Source: Nocardioides jensenii JCM 1364 = NBRC 14755 (GTDB taxonomy: Bacteria > Actinomycetota > Actinomycetes > Propionibacteriales > Nocardioidaceae). Taken from it: a stretch of DNA of 64,000 nt. The notes below the pieces were generated by a model, which had not been told where the DNA came from, searched no databases, and was given only the letters and a program-made list of their open reading frames with translations. The translations under genes and the position numbers were made by a program. Of the stretch, positions 43,944-64,000 are shown piece by piece. Location of the stretch: contig NZ_BCRJ01000046.1 of assembly GCF_001552535.1 (NCBI RefSeq), positions 1-64,000 of the forward strand, read 5' to 3'. How positions within the stretch are numbered: the stretch's first letter is position 1; each line of letters opens with the position of its first letter.

Positions 43944-44253
43944 CCCCGAGAGTGCTGCCTTACCCTCGGCCGCCATGGCTGCCAGGCACCTTTCTTCCGC
44001 GTTCCGGGCATCCGCACAAGACCCGGCGTCGCGATCTGGTCTCAACCACTTTGCAAATGACCCAGAGGTCGCGGCCAAGACGCGGCCAAAACGGCGTCCA
44101 CATCGGGCTCAGTTCGTGCCCGGATGTCCCCGCGCATCCAGACTCGTGCAGGACGGCACGCTCAGCTCGTGGCTGAGCCGCTGGACGCCGCGACCGCCCT
44201 GGCGCGCGCTGACTGCTTACAGATGCTGACAACCAGCGGTCCGGGAACGCCAA

Positions 44254-44285
44254 AGGCGGTTCCCGGATCTCTCCGAAAACCGCCT
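44254..44285 (-). terminator. Terminator downstream of the left tRNA 3' fragment
   Basis: AGGCGGTT and AACCGCCT form an 8-bp stem, followed on the minus strand by TTTGG. It sits ~20 bp beyond the tRNA 3' end, as expected for a tRNA terminator carried along with the attachment site. Confidence 0.65.
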
Positions 44286-44300
44286 CTGACCTGCACTTCC

Positions 44301-44340
44301 ACTTTGTAGCGGGGGCAGGATTTGAACCTGCGACCTCTGG
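44301..44340 (-). repeat. Left attachment repeat: 3' part of an initiator-tRNA gene
   Basis: Forty bases identical to 61185-61224. Read on the minus strand they end in a T arm (GCAGGTTCAAATCCTGC) and acceptor half CCCCGCTA, preceded by AGAGGTC. Adding the neighbouring ACCC this is the 3' half of an initiator tRNA-Met. The match to a tRNA stops at ~44343; no D arm or 5' acceptor follows, so it is not a working gene. It marks the left edge of the island. Confidence 0.85.
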
Positions 44341-55852: not shown

Positions 55853-56014
55853 ATGACCGTCTACCTGGCTTGGACCTCGGAAGACCTGACCGACCTGGCC
55901 GACCTGGAGGGGCCGTGGCATGAAGCGATGCTTCTTGCTCCGGGACTCATCGCCGTGGACAGCACTGAATCGCTGTCAGCCGTCTATCACGGCTCTTCCC
56001 AGATGAGGGTGTAG
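55853..56014 (+). pseudogene. Small gene truncated by an ISL3 end
   Basis: ATG 55853 opens a 53-codon frame (MTVYLAWTSEDLTDLADLEG, then LIAVDSTESLSAVYHGSS). Its last ~7 codons lie in the ISL3 left-end fragment beginning at 55991, so the original C-terminus is gone. Family not recognised. Confidence 0.4.
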
Positions 56015-56156
56015 GTCGGCCGGGCGCGTCGGTCCGCAGATAGACGTCGAGGTCTCCCGACGATGGAGGTTCCTACGCCATCCATCCGAAAGACCTCGAC
56101 GTGACCGACGCTACCCCGCCGGCCGGCTTCGGCCGCCCTGACCTGACCGCCTTCGC
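55991..56156 (+). mobile_element. ISL3 left-end fragment
   Basis: About 166 bp nearly identical to 58269-58434: terminal GGCTCTTCCCAGATGAGGG, the GTAGGTCGGCCGGGCGCGTC stretch and the first ~17 codons of the transposase, then an abrupt break. After the break GTCTCATCCCAATC resembles an ISL3 right end in inverted orientation. Remaining sequence to 56385 has no gene. Confidence 0.85.
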
Positions 56157-58036: not shown

Positions 58037-58268
58037 AATCACGTCGGCTTTGCGTCTATCGCTTGATGCGCCCACTGGGCGAACGAGCCGCTGACCTGCG
58101 CAAACGCCGAGCGTGGGGACGCCGCCATCCGGTGGTGACCGACGACGACCGACCAGTACCGACCGTTTCACCGGAGCTTGCGGCGGCGTCGAAGCCGAGC
58201 AAGCTCCATTCCTTTAGCTCACCGCGCCCTCCTCCTCGCCGGTCCCGTCGTCGTCGAAGACGTTTCAG

Positions 58269-59707
58269 GGGTCTTCTCAGATGACGGTGTAGGTCGGCCG
58301 GGCGCGTCGGTCCGCAGATAGACGTCGAGGTCTCCTGACGACGGAGGTTCCTACGCCATCCATCCGAAAGACCTCGACGTGTCCGACGCTACCCCGCCGG
58401 CCGGCTTCGGCCGCCCTGACCTGACCGCCTTCGCTCGACTCGACGGCCTCGGTCTGAGCGTGACCGGACAACGACTTGAACCGGATCGTGCGGTCCTCAC
58501 GTGCCGCGTGGTGGAACCAGATCAGTGGTGCCGACGGTGCGGCAGCGAAGGCGCTGCTCGTGACACCGTGATCCGGCGGTTGGCCCACGAGCCGCTGGGC
58601 TGGCGACCGACCGTGCTGGAAGTTGTAGTGCGCCGCTACCGCTGTGCCGACTGCGGACACGTGTGGCGCCAAGACACCAGCGCCGCGGCGGAGCCACGCG
58701 CGAAGCTCTCGCGCACCGGGCTGCGGAGGGCGCTGGAAGGGATCGTGGTCGCACACCTCACCGTCGCCCGTGTCGCCGAGGGACTCGGGGTCGCGTGGGA
58801 CACCGCCAACAACGCGGTCCTGGCTGAAGGCAAGCGGCTGCTGATCAACGACCCCACGCGGTTTGAGGGCGTGAAGGTCATTGGCGTCGATGAGCACGTC
58901 TGGCGCCACACCAGGCGTGGCGACAAGTACGTCACCGTGATCATCGACCTCACCCCGGTCCGCGATGGCGCCGGCCCAGCAAGGCTGCTGGACATGGTCG
59001 AGGGCCGGTCGAAGGCGGCGTTCAAGACCTGGCTCGCCGACCGCGACGACGCCTTCCTTGACGCGGTCGAGGAGGTCGCGATGGACGGCTTCACCGGGTT
59101 CAAGACCGCCGCTGCAGAGGAGATCCCGGACGCGGTCACGGTGATGGATCCCTTCCACGTCGTGCGCCTGGCCGGTGACGCCCTCGACAGGTGCCGGCGC
59201 CGGGTCCAACTCGCGATCCACGGGCACCGTGGGTTCAGGGACGACCCGCTCTACAAGTCGCGGCGCACGCTGCACACCGGCGCGGACCTGCTCACCGACA
59301 AGCAGAGCGACAGGCTACGCGCGCTGTTCGTTGATGACGCTCACGTCGAGGTCGAGGCGACCTGGGGTGTCTACCAGCGCATGATCGCCGCCTATCGCCA
59401 CGAGGACCGGCAACGTGGCCGCGAGCTCATGGAGAAGCTGATCACCGACCTCAGCGCCGGCGTCCCCAAGGTGCTCACCGAGCTCACCACCCTGGGCCGG
59501 ACCCTGAAGAAGCGAGCCGCTGACGTGCTCGCCTACTTCGAACGACCCGGCACCAGCAACGGGCCGACCGAGGCGCTCAACGGACGGCTCGAACACCTGC
59601 GCGGCTCCGCACTCGGGTTCCGCAACCTGACCAACTACATCGCCCGAAGCCTGCTCGAGACCGGCGGCTTCAGACCCCAACTCCTACACCCCCCATTGGG
59701 ATGAGCC
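58269..59707 (+). mobile_element. ISL3-family insertion sequence
   Basis: About 1439 bp. The left end GGGTCTTCTCAGATGACGG and the inverted right end GGCTCATCCCAATGGGGGG share the inner GGTGTAGG box and most outer bases. It holds one intact transposase gene. No 8-bp target duplication is seen, suggesting rearrangement with the fragment at 55991. Confidence 0.85.
58379..59704 (+). CDS. ISL3 family transposase
   Basis: A 441-residue transposase. N-terminal zinc finger CRRCGSEG...YRCADCGHVW (~50-85), HTH (~100-135), and the DDE core: Asp in VKVIGVDEHVWRHTR (~168), Asp in EVAMDGFTGFKTAAAEE (~230), Glu in GTSNGPTEALNGRLEHLRG (~405). The end GFRNLTNYIARSLLETGG is normal. GTG start at 58379. Appears intact; its stop lies inside the right IS end. 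Confidence 0.94.
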   Translation: MSDATPPAGFGRPDLTAFARLDGLGLSVTGQRLEPDRAVLTCRVVEPDQWCRRCGSEGAARDTVIRRLAHEPLGWRPTVLEVVVRRYRCADCGHVWRQDTSAAAEPRAKLSRTGLRRALEGIVVAHLTVARVAEGLGVAWDTANNAVLAEGKRLLINDPTRFEGVKVIGVDEHVWRHTRRGDKYVTVIIDLTPVRDGAGPARLLDMVEGRSKAAFKTWLADRDDAFLDAVEEVAMDGFTGFKTAAAEEIPDAVTVMDPFHVVRLAGDALDRCRRRVQLAIHGHRGFRDDPLYKSRRTLHTGADLLTDKQSDRLRALFVDDAHVEVEATWGVYQRMIAAYRHEDRQRGRELMEKLITDLSAGVPKVLTELTTLGRTLKKRAADVLAYFERPGTSNGPTEALNGRLEHLRGSALGFRNLTNYIARSLLETGGFRPQLLHPPLG

Positions 59708-59769: not shown

Positions 59770-59957
59770 TGGAACAACAGTCTGTAACACGTCCCGACTT
59801 CTACACCCTCGAAGAAGTGGGTGCGCTCTTGCGATTAAGCCGTACGTCGCTCTGGAGGATGCGCAAGCGTGGAGAAGTCCCCGTGGTCTTTCTCGGAGGA
59901 CGCCCCAAGGTGCCGCGACGTTGGGTTGAATCGCTGTCAGAATCCGAGAGCCACTGA
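59769..59957 (+). CDS. xis: Excisionase-like MerR-type HTH protein
   Basis: A 62-residue protein reading DFYTLEEVGALLRLSRTSLWRMRKRGEVPVVFLGGRPKVPRRWVESL: the helix-turn-helix_17/excisionase pattern, with a basic recognition wing. It would bind the att region and bias integrase toward excision. ATG 59769 (MEQQSVTRPD) is preferred; a GTG at 59724 would add 15 residues. Convergent with int, overlapping it by 21 bp. Confidence 0.82.
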   Translation: MEQQSVTRPDFYTLEEVGALLRLSRTSLWRMRKRGEVPVVFLGGRPKVPRRWVESLSESESH

Positions 59958-61037
59958 CACCTTCTCGGCAGCCGCGCGAGCCGCTTCGTCCGTGACGTGG
60001 CCGTAGATGTCGGCAGTGATCTGGATGGAGGCGTGGCCCATGTTGACGCTGACCACCTTGAGCGGAACACCCGCCATGAGGGCAGTCGTGGCGTAGGTGT
60101 GGCGCAGGCTGTGCACCTTGACGCCTTGCAGACCTGCCTTCTGCGAGGCGATGCGCACGGTCCGCAGCAAGTTCTGAGGCTCGATGGGCTTTCCAAGGTC
60201 GGTGGTGAATACGAGTCCAGATTCCACCCAGAGATTCCCCGCGGTGAGCCGTTCGGCCGCTTGCCGTGCCTTCTGTGACTTGAGGAGCGCTAACATGTGC
60301 GCGCTGAGTGCAATCTTCCGGCGGCTCTTGTCCGTCTTGGTGTCCACGACCCGCAAGCCTCCGTTTTGCCGAACCAGGGAACCATTCACCTTCGCCTCGC
60401 CACGCACGAGGTCGATGTCTTCCCACCGCAAGGCGCAGGCCTCGCCCCGCCGGAGACCAGTCCCCAAGATGAGGCGAAGCGCATCGACGTATCGGAGGCC
60501 CTGGGCAGCCTTCATAAGCAGGGCGACCTCGTCGAGGGTGAGGAAGCGTGCCTCACTTCGTCGGGCAGATGGCTGCTTGATCCGGTGTACGGGGTTCGCG
60601 GCGAGAAGTCCGTTGACCACGGCGTCGTCCAGCGCCTTCCTCAACGCCGTGTAGCAATTGCGTCGGGTGCTTTCGGCCTTGCCCGCCTCCTTCATCGCGA
60701 GCATGAGCCGAGTGACGTCGGCAGGGGTGATCTTGCCGAGCGGGATATGTCCCAGGGTCGGAACGATCCAGTGGTTGCAGTAGCCCGCGTGCATCACCTT
60801 CGTCGATTCAGCACGATCAGAAACACGGAGGTATGTCGCCTCCCACTCCGCGATCCACGCAGCGAGCGTGCGGCTGGCATCGCGCACTGGCGACCCAGCC
60901 CTGATGCGCGTCCGCATCTCCTCAGCCTTGCCGCGTACGTCTGCGCGTGTTCGGCCATAGACGATCCGGGGACCATCCGGTGTCGTGACCTTCAACTGGT
61001 AGCGCCCGTCTGCACGCTTCTTCATCCCTGCTGCCAT
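59937..61037 (-). CDS. int: Tyrosine recombinase / site-specific integrase
   Basis: A 366-residue phage-type integrase. N-terminal arm-binding AP2-like domain (~1-45, GMKKRADGRYQLKVTTPDGPRIVYG), SAM-like core-binding domain (~60-145), and catalytic domain (~170-366): Arg in ILGTGLRRGEACALRWEDID, His-x-x-Arg in VHSLRHTYATTALMAG, and His/Tyr in VNMGHASIQITADIYGHV. ATG 61037 has GGAGG 7 nt upstream. It lies 148 bp from the right tRNA-fragment repeat, which it presumably recognises. Confidence 0.95.
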   Translation of the reverse strand: MAAGMKKRADGRYQLKVTTPDGPRIVYGRTRADVRGKAEEMRTRIRAGSPVRDASRTLAAWIAEWEATYLRVSDRAESTKVMHAGYCNHWIVPTLGHIPLGKITPADVTRLMLAMKEAGKAESTRRNCYTALRKALDDAVVNGLLAANPVHRIKQPSARRSEARFLTLDEVALLMKAAQGLRYVDALRLILGTGLRRGEACALRWEDIDLVRGEAKVNGSLVRQNGGLRVVDTKTDKSRRKIALSAHMLALLKSQKARQAAERLTAGNLWVESGLVFTTDLGKPIEPQNLLRTVRIASQKAGLQGVKVHSLRHTYATTALMAGVPLKVVSVNMGHASIQITADIYGHVTDEAARAAAEKVSVALGF

Positions 61038-61058
61038 GTGAACCTCCAAGAGAGCCGT

Positions 61059-61072
61059 TGTAGTACGTACGG
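61059..61072 (-). promoter_or_regulatory. 14-bp element ahead of int, shared with xis
   Basis: On the minus strand CCGTACGTACTACA, identical to the element ahead of xis, 22 bp upstream of the int start and before its ribosome site. Suggests joint control of int and xis. Confidence 0.6.
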
Positions 61073-61133
61073 CTTTGGAGCCCCAAGCGAAGGCGGAGGT
61101 AGTCAGAGCGGTAGTCAACGCCCACTGAAATGC

Positions 61134-61170
61134 AGAAAACCGCTTCCCTCAGTTTGAGGAAAACGGCTTC
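61134..61170 (-). terminator. Terminator downstream of the right tRNA 3' fragment
   Basis: CCGTTTTCCTCA pairs with TGAGGGAAGCGG (two G-U pairs) across a short loop and is followed by TTTTC on the minus strand. It resembles the hairpin next to the left repeat in place and partly in sequence, so the whole tRNA 3' end plus terminator was duplicated. Confidence 0.7.
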
Positions 61171-61184
61171 TGACCTGCGCTTTT

Positions 61185-61224
61185 ACTTTGTAGCGGGGGC
61201 AGGATTTGAACCTGCGACCTCTGG
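61185..61224 (-). repeat. Right attachment repeat: 3' part of an initiator-tRNA gene
   Basis: Identical over 40 bp to 44301-44340. Tiny flanking differences begin at once on both sides. The tRNA match ends in CCAGAGG; no upstream tRNA half is present, so the true gene must lie elsewhere, most simply at higher coordinates. Confidence 0.85.
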
Positions 61225-61421: not shown

Positions 61422-63959
61422 TTAGATGACGATGGAAGTCGGGATCCGGAGGGTGTTCGCAACCGGGGTGTAGAGGTCGACGTTCTGCTCGGTGGTCTTG
61501 AGGGAGATCACGAGTGCGTATCTGACTGGCTGGTCGACTCGCGCTTTTGCAGTCTTGTTCTTCCACCATCCGCCGACCGGGAAGACAGCGAGCTTTCCCG
61601 AGTGCCCAAGCTCGACTCCCGAGGTTTGCCAGATGTCCTGGTGTAGCGAACCGAGGTTGCGCTGATTAGCGCCCACGAGCCACTTGACCTGTCCGCCCTC
61701 AGGGCGGCCCCCCGACTCCTCGGTGCGCGCGTCGTGGTTGACCCGTTGCGTGAACTGAGATTCCGTTTCCAGCGGATCTTGAACCTCGAAGCGTAGGTGG
61801 TGGGACGCGTAGCTGTAGCGGCGGCGCCATCCCCGGCGCGACGCTGTGGGCTCCACAAAGTACGAGAGCGTGACCCGCAGGTCCACCTGTGCGCCTCCCA
61901 GGTCTTGGAGCACCTGAGTCGGCCACGGTAGGTCATGGAGCCGGAACGCGGGGATCTTGAATTCATCACCCTCGAACGGTACGAACTCGTCCTGAACGAC
62001 CAAGGTCACCGCTTGGTCCGTCGAATACAGCACCCGGTCCTCGGTCGGAACTCCCCAGCCGTATCGACGCAACATGGCCTGCTGAGCCCGCTTACCAGAC
62101 TTGCCCGCCTCCTTTACGGCAGCCTGCATCACTGGGGTCCACTCTGCTCCATGCACCACCAGTGCTCGGATGGTCTCGGGCCAGTACTCCGGGTAGGTGG
62201 CCATCGCCAACGCAGCAAGACGCGCGCCTTGAGCTGTGGCTGCACTGGTGGCGTGCGCCGAGGTCAGCGCCAGATCGTTGACGTGTCCTGTGGTTCTGGT
62301 CGACAGCACCGGCACTCCGGGTTCGAACAACGAACCCCCGTCGTGCAGGACGTTGCCGCCCTCCATCACAATGTCCGGCTTGATCGGCCAGGGCTTGATC
62401 CCAAAAGGCAACGAGGTGCGGCTATACGGAGAGAGCTCGCCGTCCTCGGCGACCACGTCCCACCCCGTGTAGGCCGGGTCCGTCGGCGATTCGGTGAGCT
62501 CCGTATATGCGCCCACCGTCAGGGCATTCCAGGCCTGTCCGGGGTCCAGGACCGCGGACAGATCAGACTGAACAAGATGGTCTGCGACGCACTGGTCGGT
62601 GTTCCCGGCCGAAACCACCAGCAGTCGCGTCCGTTCGGGCGCCGGCGCGGAGAGCAGTCCAAGTTCGTCGCCGTTGCGAACAACCTCTGCTCCGACCGCG
62701 AGGGCGTCCACGGTTGCCGACCAGAGGGTTGGCTGACCTGGCACGTCTGCGGTGTCAGACTTGACGCTGATCGGCATGCAGAACACTCGGTCCCGCCTGG
62801 AGACGGCCTCAGGCATCGCTACCGCTTGAGCGGTCACGTCGCCGTAGGTGATTGGGACGTGCTGCGGCTCAGCGTTCTGCGGCATGATTCTCACAGACTC
62901 CAAGCGGTGTCGAAGCAGCACCGGGGCGGATCCTGCCAGTTGTGCTTCCAGGTCGCCGAACAAGGCAATTCCGGCCATGTTGGTGCCATGACCGTCCTGA
63001 TCGAAGCCGCTGACGCCGAGCACCGTGTGCAGATCCTGCGCGGCGAGCGAGTCGCCCAGCAGGACATGGGTGCGAGCCACACCCGTATCGAGATGGCAGA
63101 CAGCTGGCGCCGTCTCCGCTGCGGGTTCAAGTCGCTCGAGGAGATCGTCGAGGTACTCCTGCTGTTCCTCCATCGTCAGGTCCTCGATCGTTTCCACGAA
63201 CTCCGGGCGGCGGATCTCCGCTACCGGGACGGCGGTAAACGGAAGAGCTTCCAGTTGAGACCATGTGGCCTGTACCCACATCACGTTGCGGTCGATCAGG
63301 CGCAGGACTCGCGGCGAGACGACGAGGTCTGCGAACTGTGCGTAGTGGCGCAAGACATCCGGCCCGTCAGCCGTCGCCCGTAGCCAGACCTCCCACCAGC
63401 GCTTCCCGGTCTGCGGAGGCTGTCCATCGGATTGCCAGAGGTCGGAGAGCACGCTTTGACGGATCCGGGCGATGTTCGCCACGAGCTCGTTGTTCCTCGG
63501 GTTCCCAGCAGAGCTGGAAAGCTCAAGGTAGTCCTCGAAGAGCTTCAGGAACTGGGCTCGGTAGTCGTCGCTGACCCAGACCATCGCACGTTCCGGCAGC
63601 TCCAGGTCAGGCTGCGCCGGGAGCACTGAGAGGAGAAGCCACTGCGGACGCTTCGGCGTCTTGCGGTGAGTGGACATGCGTTCGAGGCGATCGATCGCCA
63701 GCGGGTACTCGGCGTTGGTTCCTTCAAGTGTGATCACGGTCCCGAGCGCGCGTAGCTCTTCCTCAGTCAGCAACTCGGCTCGTGCCTGATCGGCGGCATC
63801 CAGTGCTGTTCGAGTTTCACCCAGACGTCCTCCTCCGTGTCCGGCGCGGCTCTCGACCGGTCGGATCTTGGGATCGCCTCCGCCGCGTCGTCGAAACTCC
63901 TCGTCTGTGGACCTGTTCTCAACTAGGAGATGACTCAGATGCTGACGCGGTTCAGCCAA
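61422..63959 (-). CDS. S8 subtilisin-like serine protease, Ietas-type (IetS-like)
   Basis: An 845-residue cytoplasmic S8 protease without signal peptide. A long N-terminal region (~1-285) starts EPRQHLSHLLVENRSTDEEFRRRGGG. The catalytic triad is Asp in AVCHLDTGVARTH (~291), His in DQDGHGTNMAGIALFG (~323) and Ser in SAHATSAATAQGARLAALAMA (about residue 565). A C-terminal beta-rich part follows. Start TTG at 63959 overlaps the preceding stop by 8 bp. Proteases of this size and opening sequence occur next to an AAA ATPase as the two-gene defence system Ietas; the ATPase would lie just right of the window. Confidence 0.82.
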   Translation of the reverse strand: MAEPRQHLSHLLVENRSTDEEFRRRGGGDPKIRPVESRAGHGGGRLGETRTALDAADQARAELLTEEELRALGTVITLEGTNAEYPLAIDRLERMSTHRKTPKRPQWLLLSVLPAQPDLELPERAMVWVSDDYRAQFLKLFEDYLELSSSAGNPRNNELVANIARIRQSVLSDLWQSDGQPPQTGKRWWEVWLRATADGPDVLRHYAQFADLVVSPRVLRLIDRNVMWVQATWSQLEALPFTAVPVAEIRRPEFVETIEDLTMEEQQEYLDDLLERLEPAAETAPAVCHLDTGVARTHVLLGDSLAAQDLHTVLGVSGFDQDGHGTNMAGIALFGDLEAQLAGSAPVLLRHRLESVRIMPQNAEPQHVPITYGDVTAQAVAMPEAVSRRDRVFCMPISVKSDTADVPGQPTLWSATVDALAVGAEVVRNGDELGLLSAPAPERTRLLVVSAGNTDQCVADHLVQSDLSAVLDPGQAWNALTVGAYTELTESPTDPAYTGWDVVAEDGELSPYSRTSLPFGIKPWPIKPDIVMEGGNVLHDGGSLFEPGVPVLSTRTTGHVNDLALTSAHATSAATAQGARLAALAMATYPEYWPETIRALVVHGAEWTPVMQAAVKEAGKSGKRAQQAMLRRYGWGVPTEDRVLYSTDQAVTLVVQDEFVPFEGDEFKIPAFRLHDLPWPTQVLQDLGGAQVDLRVTLSYFVEPTASRRGWRRRYSYASHHLRFEVQDPLETESQFTQRVNHDARTEESGGRPEGGQVKWLVGANQRNLGSLHQDIWQTSGVELGHSGKLAVFPVGGWWKNKTAKARVDQPVRYALVISLKTTEQNVDLYTPVANTLRIPTSIVI

Positions 63960-64000
63960 GGCTGCCCGCCTTTCGCGCCTCCAGCGAATCGCGTAGATCC
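63952..64000 (-). CDS. C-terminus of the gene preceding the S8 protease (partial)
   Basis: On the minus strand the last 15 codons DLRDSLEARKAGSLG and TGA (63952-63954) enter the window. The frame overlaps the protease start. Too short to identify; an AAA-type ATPase is predicted from the protease family. Confidence 0.45.
   Translation of the reverse strand, partial: DLRDSLEARKAGSLG

What the first reader, a model, noticed from the sequence alone, without database searches (positions are those of the whole stretch)
61422..64000. Protease half of an Ietas-like defence pair beside an integration array
Seen: an 845-residue S8 protease with the full Asp-His-Ser triad and no export signal, whose TTG start overlaps the stop of an upstream gene running off the window. 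Known: in the Ietas system an AAA ATPase gene directly precedes such a protease. Its position next to tRNA-linked repeats is a typical defence-island site.
Basis: partly seen in the sequence, partly recalled or inferred. Interest (0 to 1): 0.62.

Follow-up and report, generated by a model that had tools for sequence, protein, structure and literature searches.

The report
Protease toxin with its ATPase antidote
A bacterium carries, on a mobile stretch of its genome, a known kind of two-gene module: a protein-cutting enzyme that probably harms the cell when let loose, and an ATP-driven partner that probably restrains it; this is a new member of a known family, not a new kind of system.

Summary
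The gene at 61422-63959 (-) encodes an 845-residue S8 protease without export signal (IetS). The gene upstream, cut by the window edge, encodes a 320-residue AAA ATPase that matches PADLOC IetA at 227.5 bits. Stop of ietA and start of ietS overlap by 8 bases. The pair is intact, patchy among relatives, and closest (90%) to one in Janibacter, another order. Among 135 related loci, 108 of 108 intact ietS genes with enough upstream DNA had an intact ietA directly before them. The tree puts it with IetS of plasmid pTiC58, in print a toxin-antitoxin pair, and apart from the branch that the profile models describe best. So 'Ietas' is the right name, but the experiments that I read for this branch concern toxicity and maintenance of mobile elements; defence is inferred. 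Three relatives do sit near CBASS genes. The nearby repeats are 3' fragments of tRNA-Met, one beside an integrase gene. Likely mechanism: IetA restrains IetS; without that, IetS cuts host proteins. An ordinary new member of a known kind.

The parts
61422..63959 (-). ietS: 845-aa S8 (subtilisin-type) protease without export signal; N-terminal family-specific domain about 1-268, catalytic domain about 269-645, C-terminal beta-rich part to about 820
63952..64000 (-). 3' end of ietA; the whole gene is contig C46:63952-64914 (L005:3953-4915, -), 320-aa AAA ATPase, GTG start; overlaps ietS by 8 bases
61136..61224 (-). direct-repeat copy with the last 35 bases of tRNA-Met(CAT): probable attachment-site relic, next to the integrase
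44252..44340 (-). second copy of the same repeat (82% over 89 bases; its tRNA part identical)
59937..61118 (-). 393-aa tyrosine recombinase (Phage_integrase PF00589, 96.7 bits), adjacent to the repeat; neighbour, not part of the pair
58379..59704 (+). ISL3-family transposase; neighbour, not part of the pair

Best explanation
This is an IetAS pair of the pTiC58/SGI1 type: a protease toxin (IetS) and an AAA-ATPase antidote (IetA) encoded by overlapping genes in a mobile region. Most likely mechanism: IetA, an ATPase of the proteasome-ATPase/p97 type that probably forms a ring, binds IetS through its N-terminal helical domain or its pore and keeps it inactive while IetA lasts. When IetA is lost (loss of the element) or diverted (plasmid entry, phage infection), IetS is released in the cytosol and cuts host proteins, so the cell stops growing or dies. 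That keeps the element in the population and could also stop a phage. Shown here: both genes, their overlap, complete catalytic and ATPase motifs, close pairing across relatives, branch membership, horizontal spread. Inferred: the restraint, its release, host targets, phage defence in this host.
For: IetS has a complete S8 triad and no export signal. IetA has Walker A GPPGTGKT, pore-loop KFMGE, Walker B LFDEFDA, sensor-1 AATN and RRFD arginines (motif roles recalled); a 40-row alignment of relatives keeps them with small variation. The model of the Janibacter relative (93% identical to ours) resembles 26S proteasome ATPases, PAN and p97. Of 135 related loci, 108 of 108 intact ietS genes with more than 1150 bases upstream have an intact ietA directly before them; 9 loci have intact ietA and broken ietS, and none with enough upstream DNA the reverse. 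PMC5006074 (abstract and sections 4-6 read) reports the same: every SgiT homologue lay next to an SgiA homologue, and there were more SgiA than SgiT. There sgiT was toxic in E. coli in under 30 min, sgiA counteracted it, and deletion of sgiAT raised loss of the island when an IncA/C plasmid was present. Mycoplasma pairs behave likewise (PMC6755753 and PMC8562856, passages). Window IetS groups with pTiC58 IetS. Mobility: the DNA shared with Janibacter is the two genes and about 54 bases before ietA (C46:61429-64968, 85%); 476 plasmid records and 48 IMG/VR contigs hold relatives.
Against: No toxicity, binding or phage test was possible. The asymmetry of broken genes (9 to 0) is not significant against gene length (my arithmetic: about 0.06-0.08 if damage falls in proportion to length; two of the nine, L086 and L181, look like one record), and many loci are metagenome assemblies in which frameshifts may be errors. 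A pore-loop motor could equally feed substrates to IetS. sgiAT gave no post-segregational killing from its own promoter, and without an IncA/C plasmid its deletion led to no loss of SGI1 in 350 generations (PMC5006074, sections 4 and 5). For the Mycoplasma pair, tests in E. coli and B. subtilis showed clear limitations (PMC8562856, passage of abstract).
Confidence: 0.65

Rival explanations
1. Dedicated ATP-dependent protease: IetA recognises and unfolds foreign (phage or plasmid) proteins and threads them into IetS, which degrades them. Defence without suicide; IetA is a motor, not an antidote.
For: IetA has a pore loop, Walker motifs and arginine pair and models like proteasome-type unfolding ATPases. 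Close pairing fits a two-part enzyme as well.
Against: IetS-type proteases of relatives are toxic without the ATPase (PMC5006074 section 4; PMC6755753 and PMC8562856 passages), so they act without a motor. Oligomers were not modelled here, so a closed chamber is not excluded.
Confidence: 0.2
2. Pure maintenance (addiction) module of an integrative element, with no role against phages.
For: Position between two tyrosine recombinase genes and beside tRNA-derived repeats; within its branch the tested systems that I read about act in maintenance (PMC5006074; pTiC58 through its citation in the papers read). In 5 of 46 relatives a tRNA gene lies within 1.6 kb upstream of ietA on the same strand, twice at about 84 bases (ietA starts).
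Against: Three actinobacterial relatives carry CBASS genes about 1 kb upstream of ietA; the family is catalogued as anti-phage by PADLOC and NCBIfam, and PMC11878078 (passages) associates IetAS in a Pf phage with phage resistance.
Confidence: 0.3
3. Unrelated ordinary gene pair: a housekeeping or secreted subtilase next to an AAA ATPase by chance.
For: S8 proteases are common; this genome has nine PF00082 matches.
Against: 8-base gene overlap, 108 of 108 pairing, specific PADLOC IetA and IetS matches, no export signal, patchy distribution.
Confidence: 0.02

Closest known systems
IetAS of Agrobacterium plasmid pTiC58 (Yamamoto et al. 2009; seen only as a cited reference)
   Same: AAA-ATPase gene directly before an S8 protease gene; IetS 37.2% identical over 804 residues; same side of the tree. 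That this AAA-S8 pair of pTiC58 is the published ietAS is taken from its gene content, not from a gene name in the record
   Different: Plasmid-borne in an alphaproteobacterium; here on a contig of an actinobacterium; genes overlap here by 8 bases, in L119 they are separated by 3 bases
SgiAT of Salmonella genomic island 1 (PMC5006074)
   Same: Same gene order and domains, on an integrative element with an int gene; reported 50% (SgiA) and 36% (SgiT) identity to the pTiC58 pair
   Different: Not compared by sequence here; island and host unrelated
Ietas / IteAS as modelled by PADLOC (PDLC04232, PDLC04233 and others) and NCBIfam (NF042956, NF042959)
   Same: Same two protein families and gene order; IetA 227.5 bits, IetS 119.1 bits
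   Different: Another branch: a protein that PDLC04233 describes well scores 1016 bits (L100) and is 21.1% identical to window IetS; NCBIfam cut-offs are not reached (57.1 of 900 and 189.1 of 510)
Mycoplasma _0132/_0133 pair (PMC6755753, PMC8562856, passages)
   Same: AAA ATPase antitoxin gene before S8 protease toxin gene; loss of the ATPase alone was lethal
   Different: Not compared by sequence here

Membership tests
IetAS (pTiC58 / Ietas) | AAA ATPase gene directly upstream, same strand, of the protease gene | tested here: met
   C46:63952-64914 (-), 8-base overlap with ietS; PF00004 104.7 bits
IetAS (pTiC58 / Ietas) | ATPase belongs to the IetA family, with N-terminal domain | tested here: met
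   PDLC04232 227.5 bits, residues 5-314 of 320
IetAS (pTiC58 / Ietas) | Protease is an S8 enzyme with full triad, the family's long N-terminal domain and no export signal | tested here: met
   PF00082; triad 41 of 41, W192 41 of 41, E190 40 of 41 rows; no hydrophobic N-terminus
IetAS (pTiC58 / Ietas) | Protease groups with a characterised IetS | tested here: met
   38 of 41 rows, among them window and pTiC58 IetS, on one side of a branch of length 1.83 (99/99)
NCBIfam IteS / IteA equivalogs | Scores over the curated cut-off (900 and 510 bits) | tested here: not met
   57.1 and 189.1 bits; the pTiC58 IetS itself has no NCBIfam match at E 1e-10, so the cut-off marks a sub-branch, not the family
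IetAS as toxin-antitoxin | Protease toxic alone, neutralised by the ATPase | not testable with these tools
   Only indirect: 0 of 108 intact ietS with enough upstream DNA lack an intact ietA
Ietas as anti-phage system | Protects against phage | not testable with these tools
   Only indirect: CBASS genes near the pair in 3 of 13 actinobacterial flanks examined, two of them one recent transfer
Secreted subtilases | N-terminal export signal | tested here: not met
   Highest 19-residue hydropathy mean in the first 60 residues -0.59; no signal-peptide program run

The most novel reading that the evidence does not exclude
The pTiC58 branch of IetAS, filed in print as plasmid or island addiction, is itself a defence module that travels alone or joined to a CBASS locus (patatin-type effector, cyclase, E1-E2), and its protease acts as a second, independent way to shut down an infected cell. 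The 9087-base CBASS-IetAS block that is 99.7% identical in Agromyces and Microbacterium would then be a composite defence cassette.
Probability: 0.2. Interest if true: 0.45.

Novelty: new member of a known kind. Interest (0 to 1): 0.22.

Why it matters
It adds an intact actinobacterial member to IetAS and shows that the branch to which the name was first given is poorly covered by the profile models held here (pTiC58 IetS scores 85.6 bits and window IetS 119.1, against 1016 for a protein that the model describes well). Counts of 'Ietas' made with such models may therefore miss this branch; the models' own thresholds were not available to me. If the CBASS linkage holds up, it makes the question 'addiction or defence' testable in one cassette.

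Tried and rejected
Sequence search of IetS against solved structures gave no match at E 1e-5. The structural second look covers mainly residues 269-652 and says little on the N-terminal domain. A beta-alpha-beta-beta-alpha-beta run at about 187-250 and several pro-forms of subtilases among the top Foldseek hits suggested a retained propeptide-like domain; superposition is poor (rmsd over 20 for several) and I do not claim it.

Chance pairing was rejected. General enrichment of defence genes around relatives was not shown: a control of 100 ORFs sampled from 128, from 13 stretches of four genomes of the host's genus, also held PADLOC matches (16 families at E 1e-10, among them a type IV restriction enzyme), and for the 100 flank ORFs only the first 25 of 113 matching families were printed, all with CBASS part names. 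That the three members matching them are the gene trio of L023, L029 and L031 is my reading together; one search does not name members. Ten of the 100 flank proteins scanned singly gave two with matches, both helicase-type. ORFs in flanks and controls were called by a simple script, not by a gene finder. The three CBASS-bearing loci are not independent: L023 and L029 are 99.7% identical over 9087 bases, and L031 shares 90% over the CBASS part.

An integrase next to the pair is not general: with the two recombinases of this contig as queries, 2 of the 82 loci searched (80 plus L016 and L017) had a match, L032 and L071. A first suspicion that the gene trio upstream in L023, L029 and L031 was a recombinase trio was wrong.

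tRNA enrichment: 6 of 46 loci had a tRNA gene, which may be no more than ordinary tRNA density (not computed in a call); only the position upstream of ietA in 5 of them is suggestive, and L058 and L060 look like close relatives.

The family-wide IetA search counted 149 of 149 genomes as matching because of ordinary AAA ATPases; I used only matches over 400 bits (3 of 149).

Paper searches listed no paper whose title or printed start of abstract announces a mechanism of IetAS. I opened seven papers: the four cited (PMC5006074, PMC6755753, PMC8562856, PMC11878078) and PMC10194956, PMC8765062 and PMC10286901 (passages, little on IetAS). PMC11878078 says the mechanism is unknown. The paper that I recall as reporting Ietas as anti-phage (Gao et al. 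2020) is not held and was not read.

Full report
What is there. The window is the first 64000 bases of an 82261-base contig (C46) of a 5.1 Mb genome. The ORF 61422-63959 (-) is an 845-aa S8 protease. Past the window edge, C46:63952-64914 (-) encodes a 320-aa AAA ATPase. The two genes overlap by 8 bases, so coupled translation is likely. A third gene on the same strand, a 367-aa tyrosine recombinase at C46:65010-66113, ends 95 bases before ietA.

Identity of the pair. The ATPase matches PADLOC IetA (227.5 bits, residues 5-314) and the protease PADLOC IetS (119.1 bits, residues 269-841). NCBIfam anti-phage models are matched but far below their cut-offs (57.1 of 900; 189.1 of 510). To see why, I compared known points. 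The ietAS region fetched from an Agrobacterium fabrum plasmid is identical over 3501 bases to pTiC58 (NC_003065.3:97873-101373). Its IetS scores only 85.6 bits with PADLOC and has no NCBIfam match at E 1e-10. A protein of the same genus as our host that PDLC04233 describes well scores 1016 bits (L100). In a 41-row tree, window IetS and pTiC58 IetS are on one side, with 36 others, of a branch of length 1.83 (support 99/99); L100, L102 and L103 are on the other. The rows were my choice: 32 of the 80 loci, four plasmid loci and four loci. L103 has a very long branch (4.02), so its own place is unsure. Window IetS is 37.2% identical to pTiC58 IetS (804 residues) and 21.1% to L100 (731 residues). 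So this is IetAS in the original sense of the name.

Conservation and anatomy. D291, H324 and S572 are the same in 41 of 41 rows, N453 in 40 of 41; W192 and E190 of the N-terminal domain in 41 and 40. The AlphaFold model of IetS (44-row alignment, mean pLDDT 82.1, pTM 0.72) aligns best with the alkaline protease KP-43 (1wmd, Z 26.3, rmsd 2.9, 379 residues aligned, reaching residue 820). The IetA model is that of the Janibacter relative (mean pLDDT 83.5), 93% identical to ours; it has three N-terminal helices and an AAA core like 26S proteasome ATPases, PAN and p97. Neither protein has an export signal or long hydrophobic stretch (highest 19-residue means 1.26 and 1.28).

Pairing across relatives. 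The search for related loci gave 80 loci in many phyla (90 matched, the best 80 were kept). 76 of 80 had an IetA-like ORF next to IetS (one of them, L082, only a fragment), and the other four begin inside ietS. With 48 loci from IMG/VR contigs and 7 from a phylum search, 135 loci were classified: 108 intact ietS with more than 1150 bases upstream, all 108 with intact ietA; 6 intact ietS with less upstream DNA (4 with intact ietA, 2 with the part of ietA that the contig or locus holds); 9 with broken ietS and intact ietA; 2 with both damaged; 2 broken with little upstream DNA; 8 cut by a contig end. SgiAT authors saw the same in 2016 (412 SgiA, 187 SgiT, every SgiT next to an SgiA; PMC5006074 section 6), so this is confirmation, not discovery. 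IMG/VR membership was taken as given; I did not check for phage structural genes.

Mobility. The closest relative (90% protein identity) is in Janibacter sp. HTCC2649, of another order (Micrococcales against Propionibacteriales). The shared DNA is the two genes and about 54 bases before ietA (C46:61429-64968, 85%). By protein search, 3 of 58 relatives matched, our genome included (37 of the genus, 21 of the order). With the PADLOC model, 14 of 147 genomes of the genus had some IetS-like match, one of them (G078) 69% identical to ours. Full-length IetA over 400 bits occurred in 3 of 149 genomes of the family sample, and IetS at E 1e-40 in 8 of 396 of the phylum sample, our genome included in both. 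Relatives lie on 476 of 72556 plasmid records and 2 of 50697 phage records. The repeats at 44252-44340 and 61136-61224 carry the last 35 bases of tRNA-Met(CAT), whose intact gene is at about C8:162310-162384; a degenerate related region lies near C46:73.4 kb. The pair thus lies between attachment-site relics and outside the 17-kb stretch that the two clear repeats enclose. To the right of ietA are the second recombinase and genes for CueP, a DUF305 protein and a P-type ATPase: a metal-resistance neighbourhood.

Defence or addiction. In three actinobacterial relatives (Agromyces, Microbacterium, Tersicoccus; L023, L029, L031) a gene trio that ends about 0.7-1.1 kb before ietA, with one small ORF between, matches CBASS phospholipase effector, cyclase and E1-E2 models (3 of 13 flanks examined). 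Two of these are one recent transfer (99.7% over 9087 bases) and the third is akin. This links the branch to defence genes, but the control set also held some PADLOC matches, so I claim only the CBASS link. In print, what I read for the branch is toxicity and neutralisation in E. coli and maintenance of SGI1 in the presence of an IncA/C plasmid (PMC5006074, abstract and sections 4-6). Lethality of losing only the ATPase is shown in a minimal Mycoplasma (PMC6755753, passages; PMC8562856, passages). IetAS in a Pf phage goes with resistance, mechanism unknown (PMC11878078, passages).

Verdict. The most likely working is a restrained cytosolic killer protease that serves the mobile element, with phage defence plausible but untested in this branch as far as I read. 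It is a new member of a known kind.

Noticed in passing
L023:1-9087 and L029:1-9087; L031:428-9063: A block with CBASS-like genes followed by ietAS is 99.7% identical over 9087 bases in Agromyces mediolanus and a Microbacterium, and 80-90% identical in Tersicoccus: a recently moved composite block.
   Followed up: partly
C46:73380-73620 (L005:13381-13621): Degenerate region similar (80% over 183 bases) to the tRNA-Met fragment region at C8:54.8 kb; suggests an older attachment site to the right of ietAS.
   Followed up: partly
L008 (C8:54801) and L009 (C8:162319): A tRNA-Met 3' fragment and the intact tRNA-Met gene lie in the same orientation about 107 kb apart on contig C8, as if flanking a large integrated element.
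   Followed up: no
L005:6163-12006 (C46:66162-72005): CueP, DUF3152, DUF305 and P-type ATPase genes right of the recombinase: a copper-resistance-like cluster in the same region.
   Followed up: no
55987-56156 and 58265-58434: 170-base repeat, 96% identical; the second copy overlaps the start of the ISL3 transposase gene, so the first may be a fragment of the same IS.
   Followed up: no
L058:4722-4810 and L060:4738-4826: tRNA-Leu genes end about 84 bases before ietA in two alphaproteobacterial metagenome genomes, as expected if the pair entered at a tRNA 3' end.
   Followed up: no
L030, L052, L086, L089, L090, L093, L143, L157, L181: Nine loci with an interrupted or shortened ietS frame and an intact ietA frame.
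   Followed up: partly
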